A DNA stretch of 64,000 nt from Chitinophaga sp. LS1. GTDB taxonomy: Bacteria > Bacteroidota > Bacteroidia > Chitinophagales > Chitinophagaceae. The stretch's first letter is position 1; every line of letters begins with the position of its first letter. Of this stretch, positions 24,465 through 32,358 are shown one piece after another. Below the pieces are notes generated by a model that saw only the letters and a list, made by a program, of their open reading frames with translations, did not search any database and was not told the DNA's origin. Where the stretch lies: the NCBI RefSeq assembly GCF_034274695.1, contig NZ_CP128362.1, positions 1,426,001-1,490,000 on the forward strand, read 5' to 3'. Position numbers and translations under genes: made by a program.

Positions 24465-26660
24465 ATGAAATATCCTTATTACCGTCAACATGACTTGATG
24501 GATTGTGGACCCACGTGCCTACGTATGATTGCTAAATTTTATGGTAAATCTTACGGCGCGGAATATTTAAAGAAAAAATGCCAACAGCATCGTTATGGGA
24601 CATCCTTACTTGGAATCAGTGAAGGGGCCGAGAGCATTGGATTCAAAACCCTCGCTGTCAAAATTGATTTTGACACATTTGTAAAGAAGGCCATTTTGCC
24701 TTGCATTGTTCTTTGGGATCAGGTACACTATGTTGTCGTCTATAAAGTCTCGGCAACGCAGGTTTTAATTGCTGATCCGGCCAGAGGAAAATTAAAACTT
24801 ACAGCGAATGAATTCAAGGAAAAGTGGTTAAGCATTAAAGAAGAAACGATCCGCTCCGGCGTTGTTTTACTATTAGATCCTGCAGCAAATTTTAACGATG
24901 CTGAAGAGGATGAGCCAGAACACAAAGCGGGGATTGATCTGAAAAATGTATTGGCACATTTTGGCAGGCTCAAAACCCTGATAGCCCAACTGGGACTGGG
25001 TATGCTGGTAGGAATGGTATTACAGTTAATCCTGCCGTTTCTTACCCAGTCATTAGTGGATGTTGGCATTGCAGGTAATGACCTGAACTTTGTCACGATT
25101 GTATTGGTGGGGCAGCTCATGATTTTTCTGGGAAGTACAGTCGTGGATTTTATCCGTAGCTATATACTATTACATGTGGGTACAAGAGTGAATATTTCTC
25201 TGCTCACAGAGTTTTTTATGAAATTGATGAAGTTACCTATGTCATATTTTGATTCCAAAATGACAGGGGATACCATGCAACGATTGGGTGATCATAATCG
25301 CATTCAATCCTTTTTCACGAATACCTTGCTAACTACTGCTTTTGGCATCGTCAACTTTATCGTATTCACTTTTCTTGCTGTTTCATATAGCGCTCAACTG
25401 TTTTTCATATTTCTTGGTGGTAGCATCTTATATCTGTTTTGGATACTAATATTTATGCCGGTAAGGAAGAGAATGGATTTCAGGCAGTTTAGTTTAAATG
25501 CGGGCAACCAGAGCCTTACGATCGAAATGATTCAGGGAATGCAGGAAATCAAGCTCAATAATGCCGAAAAGCAAAAGCGGTGGAAATGGGAGATTATTCA
25601 GGCCAGGATATTTAAACTAAGCATTCGCAATTTATTTATTAATCAGTTTCAGTCAGCAGGTGCGATGCTGATCAATCAGGCCAAGAATATCCTGGTTTCA
25701 TTTATTGCTGCCAGGGAAGTGATTAATGGAAATATATCATTGGGCGGCATGATGGCCATTCAATATATCATCGGACAGCTGAATAGCCCTATTCAACAAA
25801 TTATTCAGTTCATACAGGCATTGCAGGATGCTAAAATCAGTATGGAACGGATTAATGAGGTGCATAAAATGGAGGACGAAAATGCTCCTGGCAAGGTGTT
25901 GCTCGAAGGATTGCCAGCCAGTAAGCACATTGAGCTGAACAATGTTAGTTATATGTACCCTGGTTCAAATGATAATTATGTATTGAAGAATATTCAGTTA
26001 CAAATCCCTGAGGGAAAAACGACTGCTATTGTAGGTACTAGTGGGAGCGGTAAAACAACGCTGTTAAAACTACTGCTAAGATTTTATAACCTCGAAGAAG
26101 GTGAAATCAGGGTAGGGGGATCCCGGCTTAGTCAGTACAATACTGGTGTGTGGCGCGGAAAATGTGGTATTGTTATGCAGGAAGGTTACATCTTTTCGGA
26201 TACAATCGCCGCCAATATTGCAGTGGCAGACGAAACGCCTGACTACGACAGATTATTGCATGCTATCAAAGTAGCCAACTTACAGACCTTTATTGACTCT
26301 CTGCCCATGGGCATGAATACAAAAATTGGTAGCCAGGGTAATGGTGTTAGCCAGGGACAGAAGCAAAGAATTTTAATTGCCAGAGCTGTATATAAAGATC
26401 CCGATTATATCCTGTTCGATGAAGCTACGAACTCGCTGGATGCTAACAATGAGCGGGTTATTATGAATAACCTGGAGTCCTTCTTCGAAGGACGTACTGT
26501 AGTGATTGTAGCGCATAGACTGAGCACGGTGAAAAAAGCAGATAACATAGTGGTACTGCGGGATGGCCAGATTAAAGAATCGGGCACCCATGAATCGCTG
26601 TTGGAGCTCAGACAGGAATATTATGAATTGGTGAAAAATCAATTAGAACTTGGTAATTAA
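24465..26660 (+). CDS. C39 peptidase-containing ABC exporter (PCAT)
   Basis: 731 residues. The N-terminal C39 peptidase domain (1-130) has the full catalytic set: Gln8, Cys14 in MDCGPTC, His88 in VHYVVVYKV and Asp104 in IADPARG. Such domains cut double-glycine leaders. A six-helix exporter domain (about 160-450) follows, then a nucleotide-binding domain with Walker A VGTSGSGKTT (about 525), signature VSQGQKQR and Walker B YILFDEATNSLD. Its predicted job is to cleave and export the cysteine-rich precursor encoded at 30002. The HlyD-type partner starts 6 bases after the stop. Confidence 0.95.
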   Translation: MKYPYYRQHDLMDCGPTCLRMIAKFYGKSYGAEYLKKKCQQHRYGTSLLGISEGAESIGFKTLAVKIDFDTFVKKAILPCIVLWDQVHYVVVYKVSATQVLIADPARGKLKLTANEFKEKWLSIKEETIRSGVVLLLDPAANFNDAEEDEPEHKAGIDLKNVLAHFGRLKTLIAQLGLGMLVGMVLQLILPFLTQSLVDVGIAGNDLNFVTIVLVGQLMIFLGSTVVDFIRSYILLHVGTRVNISLLTEFFMKLMKLPMSYFDSKMTGDTMQRLGDHNRIQSFFTNTLLTTAFGIVNFIVFTFLAVSYSAQLFFIFLGGSILYLFWILIFMPVRKRMDFRQFSLNAGNQSLTIEMIQGMQEIKLNNAEKQKRWKWEIIQARIFKLSIRNLFINQFQSAGAMLINQAKNILVSFIAAREVINGNISLGGMMAIQYIIGQLNSPIQQIIQFIQALQDAKISMERINEVHKMEDENAPGKVLLEGLPASKHIELNNVSYMYPGSNDNYVLKNIQLQIPEGKTTAIVGTSGSGKTTLLKLLLRFYNLEEGEIRVGGSRLSQYNTGVWRGKCGIVMQEGYIFSDTIAANIAVADETPDYDRLLHAIKVANLQTFIDSLPMGMNTKIGSQGNGVSQGQKQRILIARAVYKDPDYILFDEATNSLDANNERVIMNNLESFFEGRTVVIVAHRLSTVKKADNIVVLRDGQIKESGTHESLLELRQEYYELVKNQLELGN

Positions 26661-26666
26661 CACGGC

Positions 26667-31275: not shown

Positions 31276-31287
31276 AATTTAATAGTT

Positions 31288-32358
31288 ATGATTAAATATA
31301 TTCTGATATTAACATTGTTGTTACCAGTCCTGATAACGAAGGGCCAGTCATTTGAATTAAATGGTATTATTGAAGGGAAAGATAGCGGCGTTATATTTCT
31401 CTATTATAAAAGCACAGAACGATATCAATTGGACAGTGCTAAGATTAAAAATGGACATTTTCATTTTCAGGGGGAAATTGCCGGACCGGTAGTCGCTTCT
31501 CTGAATAAATTCAGACCGGAAAAGCTGAAGAGTATTCACGACCGGAATGAGTTCTATATAGACCCTACAAAAATGGATATCACTGTGGAGGCCGATAAGT
31601 TTGAGCATTTCACTCTGAAAGGTGCTGCGACCGACAAGGACCGGGTATCGCTTATAAAATCCCAACAGTCAGAACGGGATAGTATCAACCTGCTCTCAGC
31701 TGCTATCGAAGCCACCACTGATAAGAATTTAAAATTAACATACATTCAGGCTACCAACCGGCTTAACCATATTATTCGTGAAAAGGATTCGGTGTTCATC
31801 GTACATCATCCGGATTCATATGTTGCTGCAGATCTGTTGCAAAAAAGTATAAGTTTTCATACCATTAGTTTTACCTCATACGACAGCCTTTATCAAAGAA
31901 TGCCACTAGCCATTCAGCAAAGTGAAGTAGGCAAAAAGATAAAGGTAACAGTTGACAAAGAGAAAGCAGTTTCACCAGGAATGATAGCACCCGCATTCCC
32001 TTCCATAGATACCCTGACAGGTAAAAGGGCCATATTGCTGGACTTCTGGGCATCCTGGTGTATTCCCTGCCGCCAGCTGGCTCCACAGCTACATCAGCTA
32101 TATGAGCAGTATAAGGATAAGGTTGAATTTATCAGCATATCACTGGACAAGAATAAAGCTGACTGGATAAAAGCCACTCAGGAAGATAATATCAGCTGGG
32201 TGAATATACTTGAAGACAATCTCCAACAGTTATCCCGCAGGTACTTTGTATCCACTATACCTACTTATGTATTGATAGGCGCTGATAAAAAGATCATAGG
32301 TAATTATGCGCCGCTAACATGGCAGGAGCTCAAGACCGCGCTGGCTAATCTGAACTAA
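31288..32358 (+). CDS. DUF4369-TlpA thiol-disulfide oxidoreductase
   Basis: 356 residues. The signal peptide is MIKYILILTLLLPVLITKGQ. A DUF4369 beta-domain follows (about 22-120), then a helical linker and a TlpA/AhpC-like thioredoxin domain with FWASWCIPCRQ (Cys258/Cys261) and the cis-Pro STIPTYVLI. It is periplasmic. In this cluster it may reduce or isomerise disulfides of the exported peptide, complementing the VKOR oxidase; that pairing is inferred. DUF4369-TlpA proteins also occur widely in Bacteroidota outside such clusters. Confidence 0.9.
   Translation: MIKYILILTLLLPVLITKGQSFELNGIIEGKDSGVIFLYYKSTERYQLDSAKIKNGHFHFQGEIAGPVVASLNKFRPEKLKSIHDRNEFYIDPTKMDITVEADKFEHFTLKGAATDKDRVSLIKSQQSERDSINLLSAAIEATTDKNLKLTYIQATNRLNHIIREKDSVFIVHHPDSYVAADLLQKSISFHTISFTSYDSLYQRMPLAIQQSEVGKKIKVTVDKEKAVSPGMIAPAFPSIDTLTGKRAILLDFWASWCIPCRQLAPQLHQLYEQYKDKVEFISISLDKNKADWIKATQEDNISWVNILEDNLQQLSRRYFVSTIPTYVLIGADKKIIGNYAPLTWQELKTALANLN

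What the first reader, a model, noticed from the sequence alone, without database searches (positions are those of the whole stretch)
24465..32358. A hevein-like, double-glycine-leader peptide with its own export and disulfide machinery
Seen: a C39 ABC exporter, an HlyD adaptor, a small HTH protein, a C39-like/VKOR/thioredoxin fusion, then a precursor with a GG leader and a 73-residue core, then a TlpA-type oxidoreductase. The core's eight cysteines follow the hevein pattern almost exactly (C-8-C-4-CC-5-C-6-C-3-C-3-C; hevein has C-5-C at one step), and the chitin-contacting Ser/aromatic/aromatic/Tyr positions are kept. Known: hevein (CBM18) domains belong chiefly to plants and fungi, and C39 exporters cleave GG leaders. 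Inference: this is a bacterial route for oxidised, secreted chitin-binding peptides, possibly antifungal or for chitin recognition. The four extra Cys in a C-terminal tail would add two disulfides.
Basis: partly seen in the sequence, partly recalled or inferred. Interest (0 to 1): 0.95.

Follow-up and report, generated by a model that had tools for sequence, protein, structure and literature searches.

The report
Bacterial hevein peptide with export kit
A bacterium of the genus Chitinophaga carries a gene for a small cysteine-rich peptide that closely resembles hevein, the chitin-binding defence peptide of plants, behind a bacterial export tag and beside exporter and disulfide-enzyme genes that would likely secrete it folded, although in this strain a jumping element splits the start of the gene; it matters because eukaryote-type domains are found here behind the tag of a bacterial peptide-export system.

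Summary
Window 30903-31226 encodes a double-glycine leader followed by a 73-residue, 12-Cys core whose first part is a true hevein/CBM18 domain: Pfam PF00187 42 bits, cut-off 27.8; 49.1 bits against at most 19.1 for 1000 shuffles keeping every Cys in place. It follows a C39 ABC exporter, an HlyD adaptor, an HTH-like protein and a C39-like/VKOR/thioredoxin fusion, and precedes a TlpA-like protein. An IS5-family element (about 30017-30926) splits the gene after codon 5; Chitinophaga sancti has it uninterrupted. A divergent third copy, in Chitinophaga sp. Cy-1792, has the same order without the HTH gene. Only 3 of 79 Chitinophaga genomes have the domain, but 39 of 79 have the fusion, followed by GG precursors in 36 of 59 loci examined. 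Six of these are LDL-receptor class A domains over cut-off, so the machinery is a general platform, not hevein-specific. Export and oxidation are inferred from gene content; chitin binding is predicted, antifungal use a guess. The kit resembles that of bacteroidetocins; I found no description of this cargo. Here the locus lies on a strain-specific island and is probably silent.

The parts
24465..26660 (+). C39 peptidase-containing ABC exporter (731 aa); predicted to cut after GG and export
   Evidence: Pfam Peptidase_C39 120.8 bits, ABC_membrane, ABC_tran; Cys14, His88, Asp104 read from the sequence; aligns over residues 2-724 with PDB 4ry2 'ABC-type bacteriocin transporter' and 5-723 with ComA 8hf4
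26667..27947 (+). HlyD-type periplasmic adaptor (426 aa)
   Evidence: Pfam HlyD_3 51.1 bits, HlyD_D23 44.5 bits
27959..28252 (+). small helix-turn-helix-like protein (97 aa); present in C. sancti, no room for it in the Cy-1792 locus
   Evidence: HTH_Mga 21.7 bits, under the 23-bit cut-off; L045 8495-8788; L068 gene spacing
28310..29938 (+). fusion: C39-like domain without any Cys + VKOR + thioredoxin (542 aa); predicted disulfide-forming enzyme, its N-terminal domain possibly leader-binding
   Evidence: Pfam VKOR 54.1, Peptidase_C39 34.2, Thioredoxin_4 30.2 bits; no Cys in the first 160 residues here and in C. sancti, while 11 of the 58 intact fusions keep one near the expected place (10 could not be placed); VKOR Cys219, 227, 298, 301 and Trx Cys413, 416 kept in 57-58 of 58
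30002..30016 (+). first five codons of the precursor, cut off from the rest by the IS
   Evidence: sequence; the C. sancti precursor begins with the same residues uninterrupted
30017..30926 (+). IS5-family insertion sequence (transposase ORF 30196-30918) inside the leader, flanked by AGT on both sides; ends good to about one base
   Evidence: DDE_Tnp_1/DDE_Tnp_4, and NCBIfam IS5 model NF033580 95.3 bits, under its 110-bit cut-off; terminal inverted repeats; of the 11 other copies at 99% or more, 8 begin at query 32/33 and 10 end at 942/943
30927..31004 (+). remaining leader, SEKFQFLNLEADRVLTRDELKSIYGG; the frame is open from 30903
   Evidence: leader residues shared with L045 and in part with L068
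31005..31223 (+). 73-residue core: hevein/CBM18 domain (31008-31121) plus a four-Cys tail; stop at 31224-31226
   Evidence: PF00187 42 bits over all 38 profile positions; genome-level 43.6 bits; Cys-fixed shuffle control
31242..31267 (+). terminator-like hairpin after the precursor
   Evidence: consensus scan, 2 found vs 1.1 expected, so weak
31288..32358 (+). TlpA-like thiol-disulfide protein (DUF4369 + Thioredoxin_8, CIPC), 356 aa; predicted disulfide reductase/isomerase
   Evidence: Pfam; 96% identical in C. sancti; a 472-aa protein with weak thioredoxin matches (23.6 bits, cut-off 27) sits at the same place in Cy-1792
2957..32770 (.). strain-specific island holding the locus
   Evidence: absent from same-species genome G053, whose contig joins window 1-2956 to 32771-35654; left end lies 4 bases past tRNA-Ser 2865-2952; large serine recombinase ORF 2785-4524 reaches across that end

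Best explanation
This is a locus that encodes a hevein-type (CBM18) peptide behind a double-glycine leader, next to a C39 exporter and a VKOR-thioredoxin fusion that would likely export, trim and oxidise it into a predicted chitin- or GlcNAc-binding secreted peptide, and in this strain an IS element splits the leader so the peptide is probably not made. Shown by sequence: the hevein domain, the leader, the exporter with its C39 active residues, the fusion with its VKOR and thioredoxin cysteines, gene order kept in three genomes, and the IS. Inferred: the leader is recognised by the exporter's C39 domain and cut after GG; the C39-like domain of the fusion, which here has no Cys and so cannot be a Cys protease, holds the leader and couples oxidation to export; VKOR-Trx makes four hevein disulfides and two in the tail while the TlpA-like protein corrects wrong ones; the mature lectin then binds chitin or other GlcNAc polymers of fungi or competitors. 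The machinery is a general Bacteroidota platform whose cargo differs between loci; hevein is one cargo and LDL-receptor class A domains are another.
For: Hevein identity: PF00187 42 bits (window), 47.6 (C. sancti), 27.0 or 29.2 (Cy-1792; cut-off 27.8). PDB: 22 sequences at E<=0.001, best wheat-germ agglutinin 4e-25. HMM built from 39 hevein proteins: 49.1, 50.7 and 27.7 bits vs at most 19.1, 22.6 and 4.1 in 1000 Cys-fixed shuffles each; the best of 57 other leader-pattern ORFs scores 5.5. The sugar-contact positions (recalled) are S-Y-F-Y here and S-Y-Y-Y in Cy-1792. Linkage: C39-ABC, HlyD, fusion, hevein precursor, thioredoxin-type gene in C. sancti and in Cy-1792, although the fusion there is only 37% identical. 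Platform: of 56 GG precursors kept in 36 of 59 loci, 52 have an even Cys number. Six precursors pass the LDLa cut-off (34.3-45.1 bits vs 24.1), and all 9 LDLa places found in 79 genomes are GG precursors. Enzymes: 58 of 58 intact fusions keep the VKOR and Trx CxxC. Precedent: in bacteroidetocin loci, deleting the thiol oxidoreductase or the five-TM protein attenuated toxin activity (PMC6671954 section 7).
Against: No experiment on cleavage, disulfides or binding. The AF2 model is poor overall (pLDDT 53; residues 36-72 under 50) and its alignment held 39 other heveins, so the fold match is not independent. Cy-1792 is just under the PF00187 cut-off by hmmscan (27.0). 23 of 59 fusion loci gave no precursor by my filter, at least some by filter misses. 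An exporter alignment of over 500 residues was not found in the fetched stretch in 27 of 59 loci. The C39-like domain is not uniformly dead: 11 of 58 fusions, Cy-1792's among them, keep a Cys near the place of the catalytic one, and two alignments put a His opposite the catalytic one in 1 of 58 and 9 of 58, so the leader-holding role is a guess. NCBIfam labels for related leaders are rSAM-RiPP or bacteriocin-like, so the cargo may be antibacterial rather than antifungal. The gene is split in this genome.
Confidence: 0.72

Rival explanations
1. A bacteroidetocin-like antibacterial peptide: the hevein fold serves as a stable disulfide scaffold, and the target is a bacterial competitor (peptidoglycan GlcNAc or an outer-membrane protein), not chitin.
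For: Same kind of kit as bacteroidetocins: GG leader, C39 ABC exporter, thiol oxidoreductase (PMC6671954). NCBIfam models named 'bacteriocin-like protein' and 'putative bacteriocin' match 28 and 9 of 57 precursors at E<=0.05. Hevein-type lectins bind GlcNAc, which is also in peptidoglycan (recalled).
Against: The sugar-contacting Ser and aromatic positions are kept in all three copies, including the divergent one, which a mere scaffold would not need. Size and Cys number differ from bacteroidetocins (73 residues and 12 Cys against 42 and 4); the sequences were not compared.
Confidence: 0.25
2. A signal or adhesion lectin: the exported hevein domain coats hyphae or chitin to anchor or sense them for a chitin-degrading bacterium, without killing.
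For: Chitinophaga lives with fungi; an endohyphal Chitinophaga in Fusarium is reported (PMC5361657, title and start of abstract in a listing). A lone lectin domain without a catalytic partner fits binding rather than degradation.
Against: Pfam finds no second binding domain or anchor in the precursor. The GG/C39 route is mostly known for bacteriocins and pheromones (recalled).
Confidence: 0.2
3. In this strain the locus is a decaying remnant on a mobile island: the IS has separated the precursor from its ATG, while C. sancti and Cy-1792 have uninterrupted copies. (Compatible with the main reading, which concerns what the locus is.)
For: IS after codon 5; no ATG in the remaining frame; island absent from a same-species genome; promoter-like sites in 29900-31300 not above chance (6 vs 4.4, sd 2.2).
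Against: Exporter, adaptor, fusion and TlpA frames are open and 96-99% identical to C. sancti. A TTG at 30969 could give a 12-residue leader that keeps the GG.
Confidence: 0.6
4. A radical-SAM or lanthipeptide-type RiPP whose cysteines form thioethers instead of disulfides.
For: 28 of 57 related precursors match TIGR04149 at E<=0.05 (best 3.4e-6).
Against: No radical-SAM or lanthipeptide enzyme among the Pfam hits of the seven window proteins and the seven flank proteins of L068 and L045 scanned. P0001 itself matches no NCBIfam model. VKOR and thioredoxin genes argue for disulfides.
Confidence: 0.03

Closest known systems
Hevein / wheat-germ agglutinin domains (CBM18, PF00187)
   Same: Eight-Cys pattern, CPxNLCCSxYGFCG stretch, S/aromatic/aromatic/Y positions; sequence search with the C. 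sancti protein finds WGA at 4e-25 and hevein at 7e-10
   Different: Encoded by a bacterium, carried behind a GG leader instead of a eukaryotic signal peptide; extra four-Cys tail; no chitinase partner. [quoted passage not shown] the passages seen do not mention Chitinophaga
Bacteroidetocins (class II-like GG peptides of Bacteroidales; PMC6671954)
   Same: GG leader, C39-ABC exporter, a thiol oxidoreductase needed for full activity, a five-TM protein of unknown role (section 7 read)
   Different: Bacteroidetocins are 42 residues with 4 Cys; here VKOR, thioredoxin and a C39-like domain are one protein, and the cargo is a eukaryote-type lectin domain
PCAT1/ComA-type peptidase-containing ABC transporters
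   Same: Full-length alignment of the exporter with PDB 4ry2 and 8hf4; C39 active residues present
   Different: Setting with an HlyD adaptor; cargo is disulfide-rich
Bacterial VKOR-thioredoxin fusions (kind recalled)
   Same: VKOR (PF07884, 54.1 bits) with a C-terminal thioredoxin domain and conserved Cys pairs
   Different: An N-terminal C39-like domain is added (34.2 bits in the window's fusion); it has no Cys in the window and C. sancti

Membership tests
CBM18 / hevein (PF00187) | Profile score over the curated cut-off | tested here: met
   42 bits window, 47.6 C. sancti; Cy-1792 27.0 or 29.2 around the 27.8 cut-off
CBM18 / hevein (PF00187) | Eight-Cys spacing of hevein/WGA domains | tested here: met
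   C-8-C-4-CC-5-C-6-C-3-C-3-C; the WGA domain shown ends C-3-C-4-C; Cy-1792 deviates (C-6-C at the start, C-1-C-8-C at the end)
CBM18 / hevein (PF00187) | Sugar-contacting Ser, two aromatics, Tyr (positions recalled) | tested here: met
   S-Y-F-Y in window and C. sancti, S-Y-Y-Y in Cy-1792
CBM18 / hevein (PF00187) | Hevein fold | tested here: inconclusive
CBM18 / hevein (PF00187) | Binds chitin | not testable with these tools
   needs a binding assay
GG-leader peptide exported by a C39 ABC transporter | Double-glycine leader | tested here: met
   LTRDELKSIYGG in window and C. sancti, LSREELKRLVGG in Cy-1792; consensus LSRxQLKxVxGG over 57 precursors
GG-leader peptide exported by a C39 ABC transporter | C39 exporter with catalytic residues next to it | tested here: met
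GG-leader peptide exported by a C39 ABC transporter | Cleavage after GG | not testable with these tools
   needs mass spectrometry
Bacteroidetocins | 42-residue, four-Cys mature peptide | tested here: not met
   73 residues, 12 Cys; reported values from PMC6671954
Bacteroidetocins | Kit of C39 ABC exporter plus thiol oxidoreductase | tested here: met
   here VKOR and Trx are fused
rSAM-modified RiPP (TIGR04149) | Radical-SAM enzyme beside the precursor | tested here: not met
   none among the Pfam hits of the cluster proteins scanned
VKOR | Loop Cys pair and CxxC active site | tested here: met
   Cys219, 227, 298, 301 kept in 57-58 of 58

The most novel reading that the evidence does not exclude
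Bacteroidota have a general secretion-and-oxidation platform (C39 exporter plus a C39-like/VKOR/thioredoxin fusion that holds the leader during oxidation) that has captured eukaryotic disulfide domains as ready-made cargo: hevein lectins from plants or fungi, and LDL-receptor class A domains from animals. The bacteria would use them as mimics that act on the surfaces of eukaryotic neighbours.
Probability: 0.4. Interest if true: 0.93.

Novelty: new variant of a known kind. Interest (0 to 1): 0.82.

Why it matters
Hevein has been called a eukaryotic innovation, with a few bacterial homologues reported in Burkholderiales and Brenneria (PMC6362431, passages). Here it appears behind the leader of a bacterial GG-peptide system that sits with its own disulfide enzymes, beside sister loci that carry LDL-receptor class A domains. 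This gives a genetic handle on how Bacteroidota would make disulfide-rich peptides, on whether eukaryotic mini-domains are recruited as bacterial weapons or lectins, and a possible one-operon route to produce multi-disulfide peptides.

Tried and rejected
Plant contamination was considered and rejected: the locus is inside one 8.67-Mb contig, shares a bacterial leader, and recurs in two other Chitinophaga genomes. Chance Cys pattern was rejected by the Cys-fixed shuffles. A second hevein in this genome was rejected: the next-best PF00187 place scores 16 bits, under the cut-off, and its frame is unlike a precursor. Chitinocin of C. flava is not this peptide: 1,852 Da, and no Cys in its reported composition (PMC10239826, abstract and section 15).

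Own claim mended: I first took the catalytic Cys of the C39-like domain to be lost in 58 of 58 fusions. That alignment shifted the column. A recount shows a Cys 26-27 residues before the HPxYPSLLS motif in 11 of the 48 fusions with that anchor (58 in all; the 10 without the anchor were not counted), Cy-1792's included; window and C. sancti have none. A pairwise alignment was too gapped at the Cys to help (47 of 58 gaps) and put a His opposite the exporter's in 9 of 58, against 1 of 58.

What led nowhere: the first AF2 model from three sequences (pLDDT 48). The fusion tree does not show that Cy-1792 is sister to the window pair, so one origin of hevein cargo versus cargo swapping is unresolved; its 'one change' for the hevein label counts only against the four LDLa rows. 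The genome-contig scan with A2 gave 116 pattern stretches and no relative; a stricter DNA pattern gave 0 stretches in genome contigs and 0 in viral contigs, while it matches all three Chitinophaga copies, the window's included. Near genomes may be left out of that collection, so this is only a bound on rarity. The fusion has no PDB relative at E<=0.01. Literature searches with no paper holding all terms; searches listed papers, none of those listed being on this system by title and abstract start (47 and 48 listed 10 of 108 and 12 of 13).

Rows dropped: of the 65 fusion places, 6 fragments were left out, giving 59 loci with the window. Of 60 same-strand leader-pattern ORFs I dropped 4 that did not look like leaders (cores with 0, 1, 1 and 5 Cys), leaving 56; with them, even-Cys is 53 of 60 instead of 52 of 56. 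23 of 59 loci gave none by this filter; the window itself fails it because it has no ATG, and an LDLa precursor in the L079 region was also missed. In one search the comparison set was 58 of those 60 ORFs (the 4 included), of which 57 were reported. Of the 12 opposite-strand control ORFs, 10 at L097 look like genuine precursors, so that control is not clean.
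Full report
What is there. The window is G000:C1:1426001-1490000 of an 8,674,373-base single-contig genome. The genus is Chitinophaga: same-genus genome G046 encodes the C. sancti protein P0003 letter for letter on a contig of the same length, 8,320,843. On the + strand, in order, lie a C39 ABC exporter (24465-26660), an HlyD adaptor (26667-27947), a small HTH-like protein (27959-28252), a C39-like/VKOR/thioredoxin fusion (28310-29938), the split precursor (30002-30016, then 30927-31226) and a TlpA-like protein (31288-32358).

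How rare? PF00187 passes its cut-off in 3 of 79 Chitinophaga genomes, in 1 of 394 genomes of a family sample and 1 of 395 of a phylum sample; the one is the window's own genome each time, with 6 and 1 further matches under the cut-off that were not pursued, and the samples drew only part of the genus. A profile search in 5.8 billion proteins with the three copies listed four proteins: C. sancti, Chitinophaga sp. Cy-1792, Brassica carinata (2e-17) and an unnamed one with a chitinase domain. Widening with the latter two gave 380 hits; in the 120 listed, those with an organism name are plants, one Adineta (a rotifer genus, recalled) and the two Chitinophaga.

The third copy is informative. In Cy-1792 (G057, L068) the order is C39-ABC, HlyD, fusion, precursor, thioredoxin-like gene. 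The fusion is only 37% identical to the window's and the precursors align at 34%, yet the hevein motif and the total of 12 Cys are kept. The HTH gene has no room there. The fusion tree groups the window with C. sancti (100/100) but leaves Cy-1792 in an unresolved fork.

The platform. The fusion is found in 39 of 79 Chitinophaga genomes and in 40 of 395 sampled Bacteroidota, the window's genome counted in both. Of 65 places in the genus I left out 6 fragments and fetched stretches around 58; with the window that makes 59 loci. A leader-pattern filter found 60 same-strand ORFs within 3.5 kb downstream, in 36 of 59 loci. After dropping 4 unlike leaders, 52 of 56 have an even number of Cys in the core; related sequences make the naive probability meaningless, but the trend is plain. 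Of 57 precursors scanned (these 56 and P0001), 6 match Ldl_recept_a, 5 LDLRAD1_C, 3 Chitin_bind_1, 2 ComC, and one each WAP, Dickkopf_N, EB, Squash and EPF at E<=0.01. The LDLa matches are 34.3-45.1 bits against a cut-off of 24.1; the WAP match (20.5) is just under its 20.8, and the LDLRAD1_C matches are under theirs. All 9 LDLa places found in 5 of 79 Chitinophaga genomes are GG precursors. So two eukaryote-type domain families occur over cut-off in this genus as GG-leader cargo.

The enzymes. The exporter's C39 domain has Cys14, His88 and Asp104. The C39-like domain of the fusion has no Cys in the window and C. sancti, so it cannot be a Cys protease there; 11 of 58 fusions, Cy-1792's included, keep a Cys near the expected place (10 fusions could not be placed), and a His opposite the catalytic one is rare (1 of 58 or 9 of 58 by two alignments). 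The VKOR Cys pairs and the thioredoxin CxxC are kept in 57-58 of 58 intact fusions; one fusion, L088, is broken by a stop. By analogy with inactive C39-like domains of exporters such as HlyB (recalled), I infer that this domain binds the leader. VKOR topology (recalled) puts it in the cytoplasm and the thioredoxin domain in the periplasm, which would couple oxidation to export.

State in this strain. The IS5-family element has 12 copies of at least 99% identity in the genome, this one included, and lies after codon 5, flanked by AGT. The remaining frame has no ATG; a TTG at 30969 leaves a 12-residue leader. The locus is in a 29.8-kb stretch (2957-32770) missing from a same-species genome, which joins the two flanks directly. 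The stretch starts just past a tRNA-Ser gene, has a large serine recombinase and many transposases. C. sancti shares 24140-32652 at 96-97% apart from the IS, with mostly other flanks. So the cassette seems to move, and here it is probably silent.

Against what is known. [quoted passage not shown] Bacteroidetocin loci (PMC6671954, passages and section 7) have a GG peptide, a C39 exporter, a thiol oxidoreductase and a five-TM protein; deletion of the peptide, oxidoreductase or TM gene attenuated activity. NCBIfam models named bacteriocin-like already match many of the related leaders at E<=0.05. The secretion kit is therefore a variant of a known kind; the hevein and LDLa cargo, and the three-domain fusion tied to them, I did not find described.

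Verdict. Export and oxidation are likely from gene content and precedent. Chitin binding is likely from conserved residues but untested. Antifungal, adhesive and antibacterial uses remain open. Transfer from eukaryotes is the simplest reading of about 60% identity over 35 residues to a Hevea CBM18 module, but no tree was made of so short a domain.

Noticed in passing
L076 6532-6876 and 7118-7357 (-); L078 6448-6798 and 6883-7236 (-); L080 8696-8953; L082 9270-9632; L111; L114; L116: LDL-receptor class A domains over the Pfam cut-off as cores of GG-leader precursors, in most cases beside the same kind of fusion: an animal-type domain in bacteria.
   Followed up: partly
L055 4466-6871 (-): Nine six-Cys GG precursors in a row after one fusion gene, all different in core.
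   Followed up: no
L097 (opposite strand to the fusion): Ten six-Cys GG precursors in a cluster on the strand opposite to the fusion.
   Followed up: no
L048 9075-9260: Six-Cys precursor resembling a WAP domain (20.5 bits, cut-off 20.8).
   Followed up: no
window 2957-32770: 29.8-kb island at tRNA-Ser with a large serine recombinase and many insertion sequences, absent from a same-species genome.
   Followed up: partly
window 13261-15858: KAP-family P-loop NTPase on the island, of unknown role.
   Followed up: no
window 32392-32670 and L045 12001-12369: Truncated relative of a type I phosphodiesterase/nucleotide pyrophosphatase directly after the TlpA-like gene, in window and C. sancti (Pfam run only on the L045 copy).
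   Followed up: partly
L044 9538-10175: Second fusion locus of the window's own genome, with two six-Cys GG precursors that are not hevein-like.
   Followed up: no
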